DNA of 64,000 nt from Hyphomicrobiales bacterium. GTDB taxonomy: Bacteria > Pseudomonadota > Alphaproteobacteria > Rhizobiales > Rhizobiaceae. The notes beneath the pieces were generated by a model, which was not told the DNA's origin, ran no database searches, and saw only the letters and a program-made list of their open reading frames with translations. A program made the position numbers and the translations under genes. Positions 2,830 through 10,859 of this stretch are shown piece after piece. Location of the stretch: contig UCEY01000043.1 of assembly GCA_900471605.1 (NCBI GenBank), forward strand, positions 1 to 64,000, in the 5' to 3' direction. Within the stretch, counting starts at the first letter, position 1; every line of letters begins with the position of its first letter.

Positions 2830-4824
2830 TCAGGCCACCTGCCGTTCGGCGAGCATGCGCCGGCTTTCGATCCAGCCGGGAATGCGTTCGGCCGGCATCG
2901 GGCGGCTGAAGAAATAGCCCTGGGCGATCGCGCAGCCGAGGGCGGAAAGCGCATTGGCCTCCTCCTCGCTCTCGACGCCTTCGACCACCACTTCCATCGA
3001 CAGCGCCCGGCCGAGCCCGACCATTGCGCCGACGATCTCCTGGTTCTGGCGGCTGAGATGCACGCCGCTGATGAAGCGGCGGTCGAGTTTCAGCCGGTCG
3101 ACCTTCAGCGCCACCAGATAGGCGAGCGAGGAATGGCCGGCGCCGAAATCGTCGACCGCAAGCTTGTAGCCGGAGCGCTCGATGCGTTTCAGCTGCTCGC
3201 CGGCGACCAGTGTGTCGAGGATCGCCTCCTCGGTGATCTCGATCTCGAACAGGGCCGGATCGATGCGATGGGCGCTGGTGATGCGGTCGAGCACGTCGGT
3301 GACCGAATAGAGGTCGAATTCGCGCGGCGAGACGTTGATGGCGACGGTTGCGCGCGGCAGGCCGAGCGCGGGCAGGCGGGTGAGCAGCCGGCAGGCGGCT
3401 TCGGCGACGGTCGCGGTCAGCCGGTCGGCGAGATTGGCGGCCTGGGCGGCCGAGACGATTTCCGGGGGCGCGATCGGCCCGAGATAGGGATGGTGCCAGC
3501 GCACCAGGGCCTCGAAGCCGGTGATCTCCCGGGAGGCGAGATCGATCTGCGGCTGGAACCAGGCTTCGATATGGCCGGCATCCAGCGCATCGGCGAGTTC
3601 CTGCTCGATCTGGTTCTGGCGGTCGGCCTGGGAGCGGAAGGCCGGTTCGAATTCGCGCCACTGGCGGCGGCCGCCGTCCTTGGCCCGGTAGAGCGCCATG
3701 TCGGCGCTGATGAACAGGTCCTCGGCCGTGTCCGCATGCAGCGGAAAGAGGGCAAGGCCGATCGAGGTGCCGACCACGGTCGGCTGGCCCTCCAGCATGA
3801 CCGGCTGGCGGCTGCGCTCGAGGATGCGCCGGGCAAGGTTACGGGCGATCTCGGCCGCATCGGTGCCGCCGAGGATGATCGCGAACTCGTCGCCGCCGAG
3901 CCGGGCGATGACGCCGGTGCCGCCGACGGCCGAGCGCAGCCGGTCGCTGACCTCGACGAGCAGGGCGTCGCCGGCGCTGTGGCCGAGCGTATCGTTGACC
4001 ATCTTGAAACGGTCGAGATCGAGGATCAGCAGGGCGAGCTGCTCCTCCGCGGCGCGCGCTGAGGCAATGCCCTCGTTGAGGGCGGTGTTGAAGGCGGTAC
4101 GGTTGGCGAGGCTGGTCAGCGGATCGCAGCTGGCGAGCACTTCCAGCCGGTAATTGGCGCGCAGAATGTCCGAATTTGCGGAGGAGAGGGAGTCGGCAAG
4201 CGCCGTCGCCTTCAGCTTGCCGAGCACGTTGCCGGCGAACGTGGCCGCGCTGGTGCGGCTGCTGCGGATCAGGATGATCGTCAGCGCCACGACGTTCAGC
4301 GCCAGCAGCCAGCCGCCCGGTCCGCCGCTGGAGGCCAGCGATATCATGACGGATGCGTGCGGCGGCAGGGCGAAGGCGAGTGAGCTGGGGCTGTAGCCGA
4401 CGCCCATCAGCACCGCGCCGGTCGCCATGCCGAGCATCATCAGGTAGAGGCCGCCATCCCTGCCGATCGCCTCGAAACCCGGCAGCGCGAAGGGAAGCGC
4501 CGCCCAGGCGAGGCCGCTGAGCAGGGCGCCGACCGTCATCGCGTCGAGCGCCGATTGCGGCGCATGCGCCACGGTTCCCCAGCGTTTCAGGAGCGATGCC
4601 ATGAAGGCGCGCAGCAACAGGCTGCCGATGACCGTCAGGAACCAGATCGTCGCGGCGAAGGTAAGGCCCCGTCCGATGGTCGTGACAAACAGCGCCGAGG
4701 CCGAGACGCCGGCATTGGCGACAAGTGTCGAGGTCAGGCGATCAAGAATCGCCGATGCCTGTGCGCGCTTCACGTCCAGTGCGAGGGCCGGGTCGGTCTG
4801 GCCAGATCTGAGTTCGGCTTCCAT
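2830..4824 (-). CDS. Membrane-bound GGDEF-EAL cyclic-di-GMP enzyme
   Basis: Bifunctional-type c-di-GMP protein of 664 residues in the inner membrane. The N-terminal 190 residues hold four or five hydrophobic segments (about 52-75, 91-115, 124-144, 150-187) with no recognisable sensor domain. A GGDEF domain follows with intact RLGGDEF near residue 310, then an EAL domain from about 438 with EALVRW, NVSPREF, EIEITEE, VDDFGAGHSSLAYL, KVDRLKLD, EGVES and QGYFFSRP. All of the signature residues I checked for phosphodiesterase chemistry are present. The usual RxxD inhibitory site before GGDEF is absent (GGTGV at the aligned place). It is transcribed alone, divergent from the DUF1800 operon. Which activity dominates cannot be read from sequence. 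Confidence 0.93.
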   Translation of the reverse strand: MEAELRSGQTDPALALDVKRAQASAILDRLTSTLVANAGVSASALFVTTIGRGLTFAATIWFLTVIGSLLLRAFMASLLKRWGTVAHAPQSALDAMTVGALLSGLAWAALPFALPGFEAIGRDGGLYLMMLGMATGAVLMGVGYSPSSLAFALPPHASVMISLASSGGPGGWLLALNVVALTIILIRSSRTSAATFAGNVLGKLKATALADSLSSANSDILRANYRLEVLASCDPLTSLANRTAFNTALNEGIASARAAEEQLALLILDLDRFKMVNDTLGHSAGDALLVEVSDRLRSAVGGTGVIARLGGDEFAIILGGTDAAEIARNLARRILERSRQPVMLEGQPTVVGTSIGLALFPLHADTAEDLFISADMALYRAKDGGRRQWREFEPAFRSQADRQNQIEQELADALDAGHIEAWFQPQIDLASREITGFEALVRWHHPYLGPIAPPEIVSAAQAANLADRLTATVAEAACRLLTRLPALGLPRATVAINVSPREFDLYSVTDVLDRITSAHRIDPALFEIEITEEAILDTLVAGEQLKRIERSGYKLAVDDFGAGHSSLAYLVALKVDRLKLDRRFISGVHLSRQNQEIVGAMVGLGRALSMEVVVEGVESEEEANALSALGCAIAQGYFFSRPMPAERIPGWIESRRMLAERQVA

Positions 4825-5161
4825 CGTTCCGCTCGAGGCTGGAGTTGCTGACGAATGGCCGCACTATCCAATGGCGGCGATAAGAAAGTCTTGATATCAG
4901 GCGGCTTTCTGCAACTTGCCCGGGCTATCCTAAACAAAGGGGTAATTGCCGCCCGCCGACGCCTCAATATCAGGCGAATGCCCTCGAATTGATCTTGGGC
5001 GGGCCAGCAGATCGGAAATCTTTTGCCTGGCCTGGAATGGGCCGGAACTTTCCTGCCGGCATCGAATTACAAATTGTCCATATCACGAAATGGCCGCAAT
5101 TCCTGTTGGTTTCCACCACATTTGTTGGGGAATCTGAGCGGGTGAAACGAGGAGTAGTTCC
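4825..5161. promoter_or_regulatory. Divergent promoter region, no gene
   Basis: This 337-base gap separates the divergent c-di-GMP gene and the DUF1800 operon and must carry both promoters. It is less GC-rich than its flanks. The ten-mer ATATCAGGCG occurs twice in direct orientation, at 4894-4903 and 4967-4976, 73 bases apart. Short open frames here have no supporting start site or family resemblance. I see no RNA gene. Confidence 0.45.
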
Positions 5162-6634
5162 ATGGCTCTTCCCAACCCGACCCTGGCCGCCATCCGCTAT
5201 GGTTATGGCCTTCGTCCCGGCGAAGAGCCGCCTCGCGATGTCGAGGCGCTGCTGGCCCAGATCGGACAAGGCGCTTCCGAAAGGCCCCGCTTTCCGCGCG
5301 AGGGGCTGAGCGGGCGGCTGGACACCGCCACCCGCGTCATCTCGCTGCTCGCCGCCGAGGCCAAGGCCCGCAGGGCCGGCAATCCGAACGAGGACGTCCG
5401 CAAGGCGACCCAGGGCGAGGCGCGGCGGATCTATCGCCAGGACGCCATGGCGCGGCTTGCCCAGGCGATCCATTCGCCCCTCGGCTTCTACGAACGTCTC
5501 GCGAGCTTCTGGGTCGACCATTTCTCGACCAGCGTGATGAAGTCGCTGCCGATGCGGATGATCGTGCCGCTCTACGAGGCCCAGGCGATCCGCCCCCGTA
5601 TCGGCGGCTCCTTTACCGGACTGCTGTCGGCCGCCATCCTGCATCCGGCCATGCTGATCTATCTCGACCAGGACAAGAGCGTCGGACCGGATTCGGCGGT
5701 CGCGCGCAGGACCGGCCGGGGACTTAACGAAAACCTCGGCCGTGAACTGCTGGAACTCCACACGCTCGGTGCCGGCAGCGGCTATACCCAGGACGACGTG
5801 CGGGCCGCGGCGCTGATCCTGACGGGACTGTCCGTGGACAATCGCGCCATGCAGGTCGTCTACGAGCCCCGGTTCGCGGAGGCGGGGCCTGTCAGCCTGC
5901 TCGGCCGGACCTATCAGGACGACGAGGGCGACGGTCAGGACCACGTGCTGATGCTCGAGGACCTTGCCGCCAATCCGAAGACGGCGCAGCATATCTGCGG
6001 CAAGCTCGTCCGGCATTTCATCGCCGACAACGCACCGGAGGAACTGGTCGGCGCGATGGTTGCGGCCTGGACGAAGAGCCATGGCAACCTGACCGAAGTC
6101 TACCGCGCCATGCTTGGGCATCCGCGTGCCTGGTCTGATCCCGGCCGGAAGATCAAGCGGCCGTTCGAGTTCATGGTATCGGGCTTCCGGGCACTCGACC
6201 TGCCGGAGCGGAATTTCGCCAACCTTTTGCGCGACATGGACGATGGCGACGAAGACGAGAGCCCGGTCCAGAAGGCCATGGACATGGCCGGCATGGCGGC
6301 AAGGCAGGATACCAGGAAGAAGGCGGGGCGCGCCAACGCCCTGACGCTCGGCGCCCTGCAGCGCATGGGCCAGCCGGTCTGGCAGCCGCCGAGCCCCGCA
6401 GGTTTCCCGGACGAGGAAAGCGTATGGCTGACCCCGAGCCAGTTGAGCGAGCGGATTTCGTGGGCGCGCACGGTCGCGCGCATCTTCGGGCAGAAGATGG
6501 AGCCATCGGCTTTCCTTGAGGCCGCGCTTGCCGATGCCGCCCATCCGGAGACGGGCAGGGTCATCGCCCAGGCGCCCAGCAAGGTGCACGGCATCACGAT
6601 GGTGCTGGCATCCCCCGAATTCAACAGGAGATAG
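5162..6634 (+). CDS. DUF1800 family protein
   Basis: A 490-residue protein of the DUF1800 family, which has no settled function. The sequence matches the family through HSPLGFYERLASFWVDHFST, the following PLYEAQAIRP segment, LLSAAILHPAMLIYLD, and GLNENLGRELLELHTLG. The start ATG follows GAGGAG at a normal distance. No signal peptide is visible. It lies four bases upstream of the DUF1501 gene, the usual partner, so the two are co-transcribed and probably act together. Family knowledge says the pair is widespread in bacteria and often annotated only by domain. I cannot assign a reaction. Confidence 0.92.
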   Translation: MALPNPTLAAIRYGYGLRPGEEPPRDVEALLAQIGQGASERPRFPREGLSGRLDTATRVISLLAAEAKARRAGNPNEDVRKATQGEARRIYRQDAMARLAQAIHSPLGFYERLASFWVDHFSTSVMKSLPMRMIVPLYEAQAIRPRIGGSFTGLLSAAILHPAMLIYLDQDKSVGPDSAVARRTGRGLNENLGRELLELHTLGAGSGYTQDDVRAAALILTGLSVDNRAMQVVYEPRFAEAGPVSLLGRTYQDDEGDGQDHVLMLEDLAANPKTAQHICGKLVRHFIADNAPEELVGAMVAAWTKSHGNLTEVYRAMLGHPRAWSDPGRKIKRPFEFMVSGFRALDLPERNFANLLRDMDDGDEDESPVQKAMDMAGMAARQDTRKKAGRANALTLGALQRMGQPVWQPPSPAGFPDEESVWLTPSQLSERISWARTVARIFGQKMEPSAFLEAALADAAHPETGRVIAQAPSKVHGITMVLASPEFNRR

Positions 6635-6637
6635 ACG

Positions 6638-7816
6638 ATGAGCTTCGACAATGGCTTCCTGTTGTCCCGCCGCGGTTTTCTGGCCGGCGCCTGTTGCGCC
6701 GCGGCGGCGCCGATCGTGACGCCGGTGAGCTTCGCCGCCATGCCCGGCGACAACCGCTTGGTGACGATCATCCTGCGCGGTGCCATGGACGGTCTCGATC
6801 TCGTCCAGCCCTATGGCGATCCCGCATTTGCCGCGCTGAGGCCGAAGCTCGGCCTGAGGCCCGATACCGGCCTGATCGATCTCGACGGTTTCTTCGGCCT
6901 CAATCCGGCCGCCGCCGCCCTGATGCCGCTGTGGCAGGCGGGCGAACTCTCCTTCGTGCATGCGGTCTCGACGCCCTATCGCGACCAGCGCAGCCATTTC
7001 GACGGACAGGACATGCTGGAGACCGGCGGCAACGGCAAGGGTGAGCGCACCGGCTGGCTGAACCGCACGCTGGCGGTGATCCCGCGCTCCGGTTCCCGTA
7101 AGGCGATCGACATCAACACGTCGATGGAACTGATCCTGAGCGGGCCGAACCAGGCGGATTCCTGGTCGTCGCAGAGCAATTTCGCGCTTGCGGAAGACGA
7201 GATCGCCTTTCTCGACCGTCTTTATGCCGGCGACCCGGCCTTTGCCAAAGCCATGGAGGAGGCGAAGAAGACCGACATGTCGGCGGACTCCCTATACGCC
7301 GACGGCAGGCGCGGCGCGGGCATAACCGACATGGCGCGGCTTGCCGGCGGCATGCTGCGCGAGGATTACCGGATCGCCAGCTTCTCGATCAACGGCTGGG
7401 ACACCCATGTCGGCCAGCAGGGGCAGTTCAGGAAGGCGGTCGGAGCTCTTTCAACCGCCATCGTCACGCTGAAGGACGAGCTCGGCGAGGATGCGTGGAA
7501 GAAGACGGTGGTGCTGGCGATGACCGAATTCGGCCGCACGGCGCGCGAGAACGGCACCAACGGCACCGACCATGGAACCGGCGGGCTTGCGGTGCTCGCC
7601 GGCGGGGCGGTCCCGGGCGGCAAGGTTCTGGGCAAATGGCCGGGCCTTTCCGAAGACAAGCTGCTCGATCGCCGCGACCTGATGCCGACCGGCGACGTGC
7701 GCGAAGTGGCCGCCGCCATGCTCTACAGGCAGTTCGGCGTCGAGCCCGGCGATCTCACCGCCAAGGTCTTTCCAGGACTGGGTTTCGATACGTCCTCGGC
7801 CTATCTGAAGGGTTAG
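6638..7816 (+). CDS. DUF1501 family protein with Tat signal
   Basis: A 392-residue DUF1501 protein. The N-terminus carries a twin-arginine signal (SRRGFLAG) followed by a hydrophobic Ala/Cys-rich core and a likely cleavage region near SFAAMPG, so it is predicted to be exported folded, with or without a cofactor. Later segments fit the family, which belongs to the alkaline-phosphatase-like/sulfatase superfamily: RGAMDGLDLVQPYGD, HAVSTPYRDQRSHFDGQDML, INGWDTHVGQQG, MTEFGRTARENGTNGTDHGT. The His/Asp-rich motifs suggest metal binding, which is inference. It is co-transcribed with DUF1800 just upstream. Confidence 0.92.
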   Translation: MSFDNGFLLSRRGFLAGACCAAAAPIVTPVSFAAMPGDNRLVTIILRGAMDGLDLVQPYGDPAFAALRPKLGLRPDTGLIDLDGFFGLNPAAAALMPLWQAGELSFVHAVSTPYRDQRSHFDGQDMLETGGNGKGERTGWLNRTLAVIPRSGSRKAIDINTSMELILSGPNQADSWSSQSNFALAEDEIAFLDRLYAGDPAFAKAMEEAKKTDMSADSLYADGRRGAGITDMARLAGGMLREDYRIASFSINGWDTHVGQQGQFRKAVGALSTAIVTLKDELGEDAWKKTVVLAMTEFGRTARENGTNGTDHGTGGLAVLAGGAVPGGKVLGKWPGLSEDKLLDRRDLMPTGDVREVAAAMLYRQFGVEPGDLTAKVFPGLGFDTSSAYLKG

Positions 7817-7830
7817 CCGGCTGGTTGCGC

Positions 7831-8418
7831 CTAGGTCAGGAAGTCGTAGACGCGGAAAATCCAGTAGAGCTGGTAGACCAGCGCGAAGATGACAAAACCG
7901 GCGTGATAGCGACGGTTTGCGGTCGTCGCGGCGATAACCGCGAGCAGGAAGTAGATCGCTGTGCGGGCCGGGTATTCCACCCCGAGCGAGGCGAAATAAT
8001 CCCACCCCTTCAGCGCTGTATCGATGATGTCGGTTAAGAGCATGCCCGCCAGGAAGAGGAAGAACCATTTCCGGCGAGACAGGAAATAGTGCTCGTAACC
8101 GTCGTAATCCTGCATCGAGGTCGGAAACAGCAGGGCGCAGAGGAAGAAGAACAGCGCGCAGAAGGCGATCAGGAAGAGATAGGCCGCAAAGCCGATCATC
8201 GGCAGGGCGTGCAGACGGTATTCCCACCACCAGAAATGCACGAGGAACAGGAACATGAACGCCACCCAGCCGAGATGGACCGGGTAGATGCGCGTCGCCT
8301 GCGGATGCTGGACGATACCGGCGAGGCCGTTCAAGAGCCGCGCCAGGCTGAGGCTGACGACCATGCCCATGACAACGCGGATATGCGTGAAGGTTTCGGC
8401 GGCGGTCGCAGCGTCCAT
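7831..8418 (-). CDS. Hypothetical multi-pass membrane protein
   Basis: I do not recognise this 195-residue protein. It has about six hydrophobic segments rich in Phe, Trp and Tyr (for example FMFLFLVHFWWWEY and FLIAFCALFFFLCALLF), with short polar loops and a very aromatic C-terminus ending FRVYDFLT. It follows the thioesterase gene by 13 bases on the same strand and ends 14 bases from the convergent DUF1501 gene. An inner-membrane location is clear; function is unknown. Confidence 0.8.
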   Translation of the reverse strand: MDAATAAETFTHIRVVMGMVVSLSLARLLNGLAGIVQHPQATRIYPVHLGWVAFMFLFLVHFWWWEYRLHALPMIGFAAYLFLIAFCALFFFLCALLFPTSMQDYDGYEHYFLSRRKWFFLFLAGMLLTDIIDTALKGWDYFASLGVEYPARTAIYFLLAVIAATTANRRYHAGFVIFALVYQLYWIFRVYDFLT

Positions 8419-8431
8419 GTTCGCCCTCGAT

Positions 8432-8821
8432 CTATTCCTCGGCCGGCACCGGCACCGGACGGCCGTCCTCGTCGAGCGCGACCATGATGAAGGTTCCGGC
8501 CGTGACCTTCTCTATCATCCGGTGGCGTGCCCGTTGCGCCCAGGCTTCAACAGTCAGCGTGATCGACGAGCGTCCGACGCGGGTGATTTCCGTATAGATG
8601 TTGAGCGTGTCGCCGATCTTGACCGGCAGTTCGAACGCCATTTCCTTGACAGCGGCGGTGACCACGCGGCCCCGGGCGCGCTCGGCGGCGCGGATGCCGC
8701 TCGCCAGGTCCATCTGGGCCATCACCCACCCGCCGAAGATATCGCCGGCAGCATTGGCGTCCGCCGGCATGGCGAGCGTTCTAAGGGTCAGTTCGCCGGT
8801 TGGCTTGGCGTTTTCGGTCAT
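8432..8821 (-). CDS. yciA: Acyl-CoA thioesterase, YciA-like hotdog fold
   Basis: Cytoplasmic acyl-CoA thioesterase of 129 residues, hydrolysing acyl-CoA to free acid and CoA. The family signature is LRTLAMPADANAAGDIFGGW followed by VMAQMDLASG, where the N-A-GDIFGGW loop carries the catalytic Asp of this hotdog subfamily. The C-terminal strand pattern (VRxxx, GTFIMVALDEDGRP) also fits. Length agrees with YciA. It is the first gene of a pair with the membrane protein at 7831-8418. The symbol reflects family resemblance; substrate preference is not readable. Confidence 0.9.
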   Translation of the reverse strand: MTENAKPTGELTLRTLAMPADANAAGDIFGGWVMAQMDLASGIRAAERARGRVVTAAVKEMAFELPVKIGDTLNIYTEITRVGRSSITLTVEAWAQRARHRMIEKVTAGTFIMVALDEDGRPVPVPAEE

Positions 8822-9020
8822 GTCGTCTCTCTGGTCCTGGAACGATTCCTCCGATCCCAGAGTAGCGGCAAGCGCGGGAGAAGAAAACTCCGGGAAAAAA
8901 GCGTTTTATATCAATAATTTAGATCAGGCTAATTCACGTCAGGCGCGATTCGTAAGTGCTTCACTACCTAGTAACCAACGCCGGTTAGTATTTAAGGCGA
9001 ATTGCGAATAAGGGGGTCCC

Positions 9021-10859
9021 ATGCAACGTCTCGCCATTTCCTGGCGCCTTTATAGTCTGGTGCTGTTGTCGCTCGTCATCCTTGGCGGCGCCATGGTCTT
9101 CAGCCTCTTCCAGAGTTATGCCTCGTCGGAACGGGAGCGTAAGGCGGGCCTTGCCCAGATGAACGACGTGGCGCTGACCGTGCTCAAGAAATACCAGGCG
9201 CTGGAAGCCTCCGGCGCCATGACCCGCGAACAGGCCCAGACCGAGGCCAAAGGCGTCATTTCGGTGATGCGCTACGGCGACGGCAGCGGCTATTTCTGGA
9301 TCAACGACATGCTGCCGCGGATGATCATGCATCCGATCAAGGCGGAGTTGAACGGCAAGGACCTGTCGAACGACAAGGACCCGAACGGCAAGTTCCTGTT
9401 CGTCGAGTTCGTCAACGCCGTCAAGGCAAGCCCCACGGGCAAGGGTTTCGTCGACTATTACTGGCCGAAGCCGGGCGCCGAGCAGCCGGTCGAGAAATAT
9501 TCGCACGTGGCCGGTTTCGCGCCCTGGGGCTGGATCGTCGGCACCGGCGTCTATGTCGACGACCTGCACGCCATGTTCCGGCGCGATGCGATCAACTTCG
9601 CCTCGATGTTCGGTATCGGCGCACTGGTGCTGATCGCCGGCGCCACCTTCGTCGTCAAGACCGTGACCGGCCCGATCGGCAAGATCAAGCAGGCGCTGCA
9701 GTCGATCGCCTCGGGCGAAGCGCGCGTCACCGTGCCCTGCACCGAGCAGAACAACGAGATCGGCGAGATGGCCCGGGCGCTTTCCGTGCTGCGCGACTCG
9801 GTCGAGGAACGCGCCCAGCTGCAGGCGCGCGAGGCCGAGCAGGCCCGCACGATCGCCAGCGAACGCTCCGACAACGAGCGGACGATGACGGCGGCCGCCG
9901 AGCGGCAGGGACGGGCAATCACCGAGCTTGGCCGGGCGCTCGAGGCGCTGGCGACGGGCGACCTTTCCGTATCGCTCGCCGACCTCGGCGAGGATTATGC
10001 GAAACTCCGCCACGACTTCAACGCGGCGGTCGGTTCGCTGCACCAGGCGATCGCGGCGATTTCCGAAACCAGCCTCGTGGTGCGCGACAGCGCCTCGGAC
10101 ATTTCGGGCGCGACGGGACACTTGGCCAAGCGCACCGAACAGCAGGCGGCGGCTCTTGAAGAAACCGCGGCCGCGCTCGACGAGATCACCGCGACCGTCC
10201 GCACCGCGTCGGACCGGGCGGTGGAGGCCCGCACCATGGTCAGCGAGACCAAGGACAGCGCCGGCCGTTCGGGCGAGATCGTCCGCAATGCGATCGACGC
10301 CATGGGCCGGATCGAGGAGAGCTCCAACCGCATCAACCAGATCATCTCGGTGATCGACGAAATCGCCTTCCAGACCAACCTCCTGGCGCTGAACGCCGGC
10401 GTCGAGGCGGCGCGGGCCGGCGAGGCGGGCAGGGGCTTTGCGGTCGTCGCGCAGGAAGTGCGCGAACTGGCGCAGCGCTCCGCCAATGCCGCCAAGGAGA
10501 TCAAGACGCTGATCGGCAATTCCGCCCGCGAGGTGGAAGGCGGCGTGGCACTGGTGCGCTCCACCGGCGATGCGCTGGTCGAGATCGCCACGCTGGTCGA
10601 GCGGGTCAACGCCCATGTGGATACGATTGCCACGGCCGCCCGCGAACAGGCGACCGGGCTTCAGGAGATCAACTCCTCGGTCAACCACATGGACCAGATG
10701 ACCCAGCAGAACGCGGCGATGGTCGAGGAAACCACCGCGGCGAGCCAGACGCTCGCTGAACAGAGCCTGCACCTGCAGGGCCTGCTTTCGGCCTTTAGGC
10801 TCGGCGACCGCGGCCGCGGCGCAGCCTCCGGTTACGGGGCCCACGCCCGCGCTGCCTGA
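9021..10859 (+). CDS. Methyl-accepting chemotaxis protein with periplasmic Cache domain
   Basis: Transmembrane chemoreceptor of 612 residues. A first membrane helix (about 10-30) precedes a periplasmic single-Cache domain (to about 190) with the typical DGSGYFWINDMLPRMIMHP and APWGWIVGTGVYVDD segments, which in this family bind small organic acids. A second helix (about 195-217) leads to a HAMP domain, then the cytoplasmic signalling rod with the conserved CheA/CheW-binding tip near residue 447 ([20 protein letters not shown]). The C-terminus ends HARAA, without a CheR-docking pentapeptide. It is transcribed alone after an AT-rich leader and ends at a strong terminator. Confidence 0.96.
   Translation: MQRLAISWRLYSLVLLSLVILGGAMVFSLFQSYASSERERKAGLAQMNDVALTVLKKYQALEASGAMTREQAQTEAKGVISVMRYGDGSGYFWINDMLPRMIMHPIKAELNGKDLSNDKDPNGKFLFVEFVNAVKASPTGKGFVDYYWPKPGAEQPVEKYSHVAGFAPWGWIVGTGVYVDDLHAMFRRDAINFASMFGIGALVLIAGATFVVKTVTGPIGKIKQALQSIASGEARVTVPCTEQNNEIGEMARALSVLRDSVEERAQLQAREAEQARTIASERSDNERTMTAAAERQGRAITELGRALEALATGDLSVSLADLGEDYAKLRHDFNAAVGSLHQAIAAISETSLVVRDSASDISGATGHLAKRTEQQAAALEETAAALDEITATVRTASDRAVEARTMVSETKDSAGRSGEIVRNAIDAMGRIEESSNRINQIISVIDEIAFQTNLLALNAGVEAARAGEAGRGFAVVAQEVRELAQRSANAAKEIKTLIGNSAREVEGGVALVRSTGDALVEIATLVERVNAHVDTIATAAREQATGLQEINSSVNHMDQMTQQNAAMVEETTAASQTLAEQSLHLQGLLSAFRLGDRGRGAASGYGAHARAA

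What the first reader, a model, noticed from the sequence alone, without database searches (positions are those of the whole stretch)
5162..7816. DUF1800-DUF1501 Tat-linked operon of unknown role
Two genes four bases apart; the second has a twin-arginine signal, the first no visible export signal. The pair is widespread but uncharacterised. The layout suggests a cytoplasmic partner that matures or co-exports a Tat substrate with a sulfatase-like metal site.
Basis: partly seen in the sequence, partly recalled or inferred. Interest (0 to 1): 0.5.

Follow-up and report, generated by a model that had tools for sequence, protein, structure and literature searches.

The report
Tat-exported metalloenzyme with signal-less partner
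Two neighbouring bacterial genes of unknown function, almost never found apart, appear to make a metal-dependent enzyme that is exported already folded together with a partner protein that has no export signal of its own; a second copy in the same genome, and copies in some other bacteria, sit behind a cell-envelope stress switch, which gives a first testable idea of when such a pair is used.

Summary
In detail: DUF1800 (5162-6634) and DUF1501 (6638-7816) are adjacent, and the pair is widespread. All 67 DUF1800-bearing genomes of a 299-genome phylum sample also have DUF1501; in 204 of 207 collected DUF1800 frames DUF1501 follows directly. DUF1501 carries a nearly invariant twin arginine (201 and 204 of 205) and invariant metal-ligand-like residues of alkaline-phosphatase type, but no sulfatase cysteine. 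The window DUF1800 has one possible start and no signal. Its clade of 155 has none (154; one unclear), while two other clades carry export signals on DUF1800. A PF13801-type gene precedes 40 of 204 pairs, with the sigma seen in 32, many in close relatives. No passage read links the pair to such a switch. The window copy lacks it; the substrate is unknown.

The parts
5162..6634 (+). DUF1800 protein, 490 aa, no N-terminal signal
   Evidence: PF08811 E 5e-100; only one start codon before the conserved RYGYG motif
5726..5764 (+). NENLGRELLELHT motif (residues 189-201), core of DUF1800
   Evidence: A3 (65 sequences) invariant columns N189 E190 N191 R194 E195 E198 L199 H200 T201; in A1 (11 sequences, with signal-bearing relatives) all of these but the His are invariant
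6638..7816 (+). DUF1501 protein, 392 aa
   Evidence: PF07394 E 6e-35
6638..6739 (+). predicted Tat signal (RR at 6668-6673); cleavage site not determined, end approximate
   Evidence: TIGR01409 15.5 bits, cut-off 16.7; RR columns 201 and 204 of 205
6788..6790 (+). D51, proposed metal ligand
   Evidence: D in 204 of 205
6992..6997 (+). S119-H120, proposed nucleophile and ligand
   Evidence: S 202 and H 203 of 205; roles are inference
7400..7408 (+). D255-T-H257, proposed metal ligands
   Evidence: D 203 and H 203 of 205; H257 aligned by HMMER with the His of an alkaline phosphatase 'DWAGH' stretch, E 0.09
7526..7537 (+). E297-F-G-R300
   Evidence: E 200, R 203 of 205; aligned with sulfatase 'SDnG' by hhalign
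7568..7573 (+). D311-H312 of GTDHG, proposed metal ligands
   Evidence: D 199, H 203 of 205
5066..5130 (+). non-coding block upstream of DUF1800, conserved in most window-type copies of the genus; role unknown
   Evidence: alignment of upstream regions of the window and 20 orthologues

Best explanation
The operon encodes a two-protein unit. DUF1501 is a metal-dependent hydrolase of the alkaline-phosphatase type that folds and takes up its metals in the cytoplasm and leaves through the Tat translocase on its own twin-arginine signal. DUF1800 has no signal, is made next to it from closely spaced genes, binds it and is carried out with it (Tat hitchhiking), so that both act in the periplasm. Shown here: pairing, gene order and close spacing, the RR motif, absence of a signal on DUF1800 in this clade, its presence in two other clades, a shared invariant core, correlated divergence. 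Inferred: complex formation, co-export, metal binding, hydrolysis. The second copy in the same genome is probably controlled by an ECF sigma factor released by an envelope sensor; the window copy is not behind that module and must be controlled otherwise.
For: Co-occurrence: the same 35 of 60 genomes (own included) carry both families; 67 of 67 DUF1800 carriers in 299 phylum genomes, own included; 67 of 68 in 239 class genomes. DUF1501 follows DUF1800 on the same strand in 204 of 207 frames; nearest usable start within 30 nt of the DUF1800 stop in 184 of 199 readable junctions. RR columns 201 and 204 of 205. DUF1800 signal: 29 yes, 166 no, 12 unclear; the states change 4 times on the tree against at least 23 in 200 shuffles; the window's clade is 154 no, 1 unclear of 155. 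In 20 of 21 window-type genes of the genus (window included) a start lies exactly 11 codons before the RYGYG/RFGYG motif (L252: 15), and in 12 of 21 no start lies further upstream, so no signal can be read there. Core residues shared by signal-less and signal-bearing DUF1800. Pairwise identities of the two proteins correlate at r 0.915 over 200 pairs, permuted maximum 0.12. TatC present.
Against: Curated Tat models are weak on this family: TIGR01409 15.5 bits in the window, below its cut-off, and a match at E 1 in only 7 of 61 members; PF10518 in 12 of 61, not in the window protein. Shared species history also raises the mirror-tree value, and adjacent partners were recognised by it in only 20 of 26 cases within ten multi-copy genomes that I listed. 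Kinship to alkaline phosphatases is weak: PDB E 0.09, hhalign probability 18% though P 0.0013 and above seven controls. The two clades with signals also hold 3 and 9 members without one, and signal-less DUF1800 is the commoner state in this (biased) sample, so which state is ancestral is open and a cytoplasmic role in this clade is not excluded. My signal calls combined a simple script with reading by eye.
Confidence: 0.55

Rival explanations
1. DUF1800 is a cytoplasmic maturation factor: it binds the DUF1501 precursor, helps folding or metal loading and releases it to Tat, as NarJ/TorD-type chaperones do.
For: No signal on DUF1800 in a clade of 155 (154 no, 1 unclear); adjacency and tight spacing. 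Dedicated chaperones encoded beside Tat substrates are a known pattern (recalled).
Against: Two other clades carry Sec, lipoprotein or Tat signals on DUF1800 with nearly the same core residues, which a cytoplasmic chaperone should not need. No Pfam match other than PF08811 at E 1.
Confidence: 0.27
2. The two proteins are linked only by regulation: DUF1800 works alone in the cytoplasm and DUF1501 alone in the periplasm.
For: Nothing in sequence proves contact; partner recognition by similarity profile was imperfect, 20 of 26.
Against: Near-absolute co-occurrence and fixed order; pairing held whether DUF1800 has a signal or not.
Confidence: 0.1
3. DUF1501 is a true formylglycine sulfatase and DUF1800 its activating partner.
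For: Aligns with sulfatases in the 'TEFGR' region by hhalign, score 35.6 against 13.4-21.4 for seven controls.
Against: No PF00884 match at E 1; the only cysteines are at 19 and 20, in the signal; the aligned site is Ala or Gly in 179 of 205, Ser in 10 (the window among them) and Cys in 8.
Confidence: 0.03

Closest known systems
DUF1501-DUF1800 pairs beside bacterial chitin synthases (PMC5122149, passages read)
   Same: Same two families, predicted operon, DUF1501 with a predicted Tat signal; Agrobacterium vitis has two pairs
   Different: No chitin synthase was noticed beside the window pair or the second copy (ORF lists; no domain search for it); the passages seen do not discuss a signal on DUF1800, and 'sigma factor', 'ECF' and 'heavy metal' do not occur in the main text
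Tat hitchhiker complexes such as E. coli PaoABC (PMC4273604, start of abstract in search listing)
   Same: Several subunits leave together by Tat; that the partners bear no signal of their own is recalled
   Different: PaoABC is an aldehyde oxidoreductase; here the signal-bearing subunit is alkaline-phosphatase-like and export is not shown
CnrYXH of Cupriavidus metallidurans (recalled; papers only in listing)
   Same: ECF sigma, single-span anti-sigma-like protein and PF13801 envelope protein in one operon, seen at the second copy
   Different: Gene order differs (recalled), no conserved His or Cys in the sensor, neighbour genes are DUF1800-DUF1501; module absent from the window
Alkaline phosphatase / sulfatase superfamily
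   Same: Invariant D, S, D-x-H, E, D-H residues
   Different: Only weak detectable kinship; no formylglycine site

Membership tests
DUF1800 (PF08811) | Score above Pfam cut-off | tested here: met
   336 bits, cut-off 26.1
DUF1501 (PF07394) | Score above Pfam cut-off | tested here: met
   121.6 bits, cut-off 27
Tat substrate | Conserved twin-arginine motif before a hydrophobic stretch | tested here: met
   RR at residues 11-12, columns R in 201 and 204 of 205
Tat substrate | Curated Tat-signal model over its cut-off | tested here: not met
   TIGR01409 15.5 bits, cut-off 16.7; PF10518 no match in the window protein at E 1, 12 of 61 members match
Tat substrate | TatC-dependent export | not testable with these tools
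   TatC gene present; needs an experiment
Tat hitchhiker complex | Partner without any signal | tested here: met
   Single start codon, no signal; 154 of 155 clade members without, 1 unclear
Tat hitchhiker complex | Partner binds the signal-bearing subunit and reaches the periplasm | not testable with these tools
Alkaline phosphatase superfamily | Detectable profile kinship | tested here: inconclusive
   PDB E 0.09-0.1 to four alkaline phosphatases; hhalign to 16 sulfatases probability 18%, P 0.0013, seven controls below 1%
Alkaline phosphatase superfamily | Conserved Asp/His metal-ligand set and Ser/Thr nucleophile | tested here: inconclusive
   Invariant residues of the right kinds, but geometry not modelled
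Formylglycine sulfatase (PF00884) | Conserved Cys/Ser of C-x-P-x-R | tested here: not met
   Ser in the window, but Ala or Gly in 179 of 205, Cys in 8; no PF00884 match at E 1
NarJ/TorD-type Tat chaperone | Match to a known chaperone family | tested here: not met
   DUF1800 matches only PF08811 at E 1; fold not tested
CnrYXH-like ECF regulon | ECF sigma, anti-sigma and PF13801 sensor next to the pair (window copy) | tested here: not met
   None of the three profiles hit the 64-kb window at E 0.001
CnrYXH-like ECF regulon | Same, second copy in the genome | tested here: met
   L016 5437-9666; PF04542/PF08281, PF13801 E 3e-22; the 145-aa middle protein matches no family, its anti-sigma role is inferred

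The most novel reading that the evidence does not exclude
DUF1800-DUF1501 is the output of a previously unlinked envelope-stress switch: an ECF sigma factor held by a membrane anti-sigma and a CnrX/ZraP/CpxP-type sensor fires a promoter GACGGATT-N10..14-CGTT in front of the pair, and the products leave as a Tat-hitchhiking metalloenzyme complex that repairs or remodels the envelope; the window copy is a paralogue uncoupled from that switch.
Probability: 0.35. Interest if true: 0.7.

Novelty: new variant of a known kind. Interest (0 to 1): 0.5.

Why it matters
DUF1800 is carried by 67 of 299 sampled genomes of the phylum, yet only four papers of the library name it, and the passages read in three of them give it no function (the fourth, PMC7563939, was seen in the listing only). 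The work gives three handles: a sharp test of co-export against chaperoning, a ligand set to mutate, and, for the second copy, a candidate promoter with its sigma factor to learn when the pair is needed. If co-export is right, losing or gaining a signal on one subunit while its partner keeps Tat would be a natural experiment in how hitchhiker complexes evolve.

Tried and rejected
Sulfatase proper: rejected for lack of a conserved formylglycine site and of any PF00884 match. A chitin-synthase link, known elsewhere: no such gene noticed in the ORF lists around either copy, though I ran no search for it. Metal sensing as such: all seven sensor proteins scanned and the two are PF13801, but in the alignment of 40 no column conserved in more than 65% is His or Cys, so I call it an envelope sensor, not a metal sensor. 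ECF control of the window copy: no ECF module in the window and no match to the promoter pattern near it; the three matches in the genome are two at the second copy and one inside a coding frame on C61. A promoter count over whole related genomes is noisy: 47 of 60 genomes match, with 1 to 7 matches each, while the reversed pattern has 0 to 2, so the reversed control is lenient and I rely on position. Dyad counting gave no clear winner (best dyad in 6 of 22 sequences, shuffles up to 4; several hits fall in coding repeats); the element was seen by eye in the printed sequences and then tested. Fused DUF1800-DUF1501 frames: none among 207.

Solved structures: no phmmer match for either protein at E 1, none for the DUF1800 profile at E 10. 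Fold comparison was not possible without a model.

Full report
OBSERVATION. The two ORFs are at the stated places. The first, 490 aa, is DUF1800 (PF08811, 336 bits); the second, 392 aa, is DUF1501 (PF07394, 121.6 bits). Three bases separate stop and start. The genome (7.12 Mb, 110 contigs) has a second pair on contig 38. A genome of the same genus, G015, has a contig of 1,807,065 bases, the length of the Neorhizobium galegae replicon NZ_HG938354.1, with the gene at the same place, so the host is very probably Neorhizobium (inference).

CO-OCCURRENCE. Of 60 genomes (own and relatives) 35 have DUF1800 and the same 35 have DUF1501 (lists compared by eye). Of 299 phylum genomes, own included, 67 have DUF1800 and 71 DUF1501; all 67 have both, and the four extra have only weak matches, three below the Pfam cut-off and one at it (by eye). 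Of 239 class genomes, own left out, 67 have both, one (G287, a fragment beginning 33 bases from a contig end) DUF1800 only, six DUF1501 only, four of these below cut-off and two on contigs of 5.6 and 4.0 kb. Of 209 DUF1501 frames four have no partner: a second fragment in L059, one on a short contig (L184) and two distant ones scoring 36 and 27 bits (L182, L183). The sample leans to the window's kind of DUF1800, since the 80 are the best matches to it and its like. Taking the usable start nearest to the DUF1800 stop, DUF1501 begins within 30 nt in 184 of 199 readable junctions, median 2 nt.

EXPORT SIGNALS. In 205 aligned DUF1501 partners the two arginine columns are R in 201 and 204; a regular expression found a twin-arginine motif in 201 of 205, and of the four misses two have RRR variants, one is masked and one (L021) has none. 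Curated Tat models are less sure: TIGR01409 matches 7 and PF10518 12 of 61 members at E 1. DUF1800 is different. In the window only one start, eight codons after a stop, precedes the conserved motif. Of 21 window-type genes of the genus 20 have a start exactly 11 codons before that motif (L252 has 15), and 12 have none further upstream. By script and eye 29 of 207 DUF1800 proteins have an export signal (mostly Sec, some lipoprotein or Tat), 166 have none and 12 are unclear. On a tree of the DUF1800 domain these states need 4 changes against at least 23 in 200 shuffles; the window lies in a clade of 155 with 154 signal-less and 1 unclear, and signals gather in two other clades: 18 of 29 (3 without, 8 unclear) and 11 of 23 (9 without, 3 unclear). 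An alignment of 11 of both kinds keeps the same core, including N-E-N, R-E, E-L and T. One family working outside the cytoplasm in two clades, and losing or lacking its signal in a third while the adjacent partner keeps RR, is most simply explained by co-export; a cytoplasmic chaperone remains possible. The divergence of the two proteins is correlated (r 0.915, 200 pairs, permuted maximum 0.12), but common descent contributes, and the adjacent partner was picked correctly in only 20 of 26 cases in ten multi-copy genomes that I listed.

ACTIVE SITE. In DUF1501 D51, S119, H120, D255, H257, E297, R300, D311 and H312 are conserved in 199 to 204 of 205. Against PDB sequences the profile has six hits up to E 10: four alkaline phosphatases at E 0.09-0.1, with H257 aligned with the His of 'DWAGH', and two NEMO chains at 0.8 and 1.2. 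hhalign against 16 sulfatases gives score 35.6, probability 18%, P 0.0013, against 13.4 to 21.4 for seven unrelated alignments. This is suggestive, not proof. The conserved sulfatase cysteine is absent. DUF1800 has no detectable relative among solved structures.

A STRESS SWITCH AT THE SECOND COPY. Around the second pair (L016) the order is: ECF sigma 5437-5979, a 145-aa protein with one hydrophobic stretch 5976-6413, a PF13801 'Metal_resist' protein 6410-6859, DUF1800 6935-8440, DUF1501 8437-9666. A PF13801-type gene lies upstream of the pair in 40 of 204 pairs (16 of 122 with at least 2.5 kb of upstream sequence; many of the 40 are Neorhizobium or other relatives, so the figures depend on sampling). 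Of these 40, the sigma is seen in 32 and the anti-sigma-type profile in 34; short flanks hide some (counted by eye). It occurs with signal-less (36) and signal-bearing (4) DUF1800; among the four signal-bearing ones the sigma profile hits only two, weakly, and the anti-sigma profile none. All seven further members sent to Pfam are PF13801, three also LTXXQ. Presence of the gene changes 10 times on the tree. In its alignment no strongly conserved column is His or Cys, so I do not claim metal sensing.

PROMOTER. Reading the upstream sequences showed a repeated element. GACGGATTT-N10..15-CGTT matches three places in the whole genome: before the sigma gene and before DUF1800 of the second copy, and once inside a coding frame; the reversed pattern matches none. 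In the collected loci ACGGATT-N10..14-CGTT lies within 700 bp before the DUF1800 domain in 17 of 40 pairs with the module and 3 of 164 without (two of the three are one locus held twice), the reversed pattern in 0 of 204, against 17 further matches in 3.97 Mb of strand sequence, some of which are the sigma promoters. Ten of the 17 are Neorhizobium, six Burkholderia or Paraburkholderia and one unnamed. The pattern was derived from some of these same loci, so the count is not an independent test, but it is far above background. Across whole genomes 47 of 60 have 1 to 7 matches and the reversed pattern 0 to 2, so many single matches are chance. The window copy has neither module nor element; most window-type copies share another conserved upstream block of unknown meaning.

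KNOWN WORK. Searches for DUF1800 (4 papers), DUF1501 (10), both (2), COG5267 (1), COG4102 (2), PF08811 (2), PF07394 (1), PF13801 (0). PMC5122149 (passages) describes the operon with chitin synthases and a predicted Tat signal on DUF1501; PMC6946804 (passage) names both COGs as uncharacterised among the 50 most abundant in SAR202; PMC4452313 (passage) mentions signal peptides in DUF1501 clusters of planctomycetes and relatives; PMC6653060, PMC3597751 and PMC6329079 (passages) only list the domains. The other papers that name the domains were seen in listings only. None of the passages links the pair to an ECF sigma factor; one broad search for ECF, anti-sigma, CnrX and context (listing only) was not followed into the papers. 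The library lacks most subscription papers and supplements were not read.

VERDICT. The regulatory link is the new part and belongs to the second copy, not to the window copy.

Noticed in passing
L016 5437-9666 (second copy, contig 38): Five-gene operon: ECF sigma, small single-span protein, PF13801 sensor, DUF1800, DUF1501, with two promoter-like elements.
   Followed up: yes
window 5066-5130: Non-coding block (TTACAAATTGTCCAT... GGTTTCCACCACATT) conserved upstream of most window-type DUF1800 genes in the genus; no known site assigned.
   Followed up: partly
L051, L052, L056, L059, L062, just upstream of the sigma gene: Reading frame that looks by eye like EF-hand repeats (MDTNKDGFVDK...) ends just before the ECF sigma (sequences printed); not checked with a profile.
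   Followed up: no
L176-L180: Distant DUF1800 proteins with long N-terminal extensions; signal state could not be decided.
   Followed up: partly
L021: DUF1501 that seems to lack an export signal although its neighbour DUF1800 is signal-less too.
   Followed up: no
plasmids collection, 42 records: DUF1800 genes also lie on large plasmids of Rhizobium, Vibrio, Novosphingobium, Cupriavidus and others; one is in Miltoncostaea, an actinobacterium (its phylum recalled).
   Followed up: no
window 2830-4824 (-), 7831-8418 (-), 8432-8821 (-), 9021-10859 (+): Neighbours of the window pair: GGDEF-EAL protein, unknown protein without a significant Pfam match, 4HBT thioesterase, chemotaxis receptor with Cache domain; no functional tie to the pair is evident.
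   Followed up: partly
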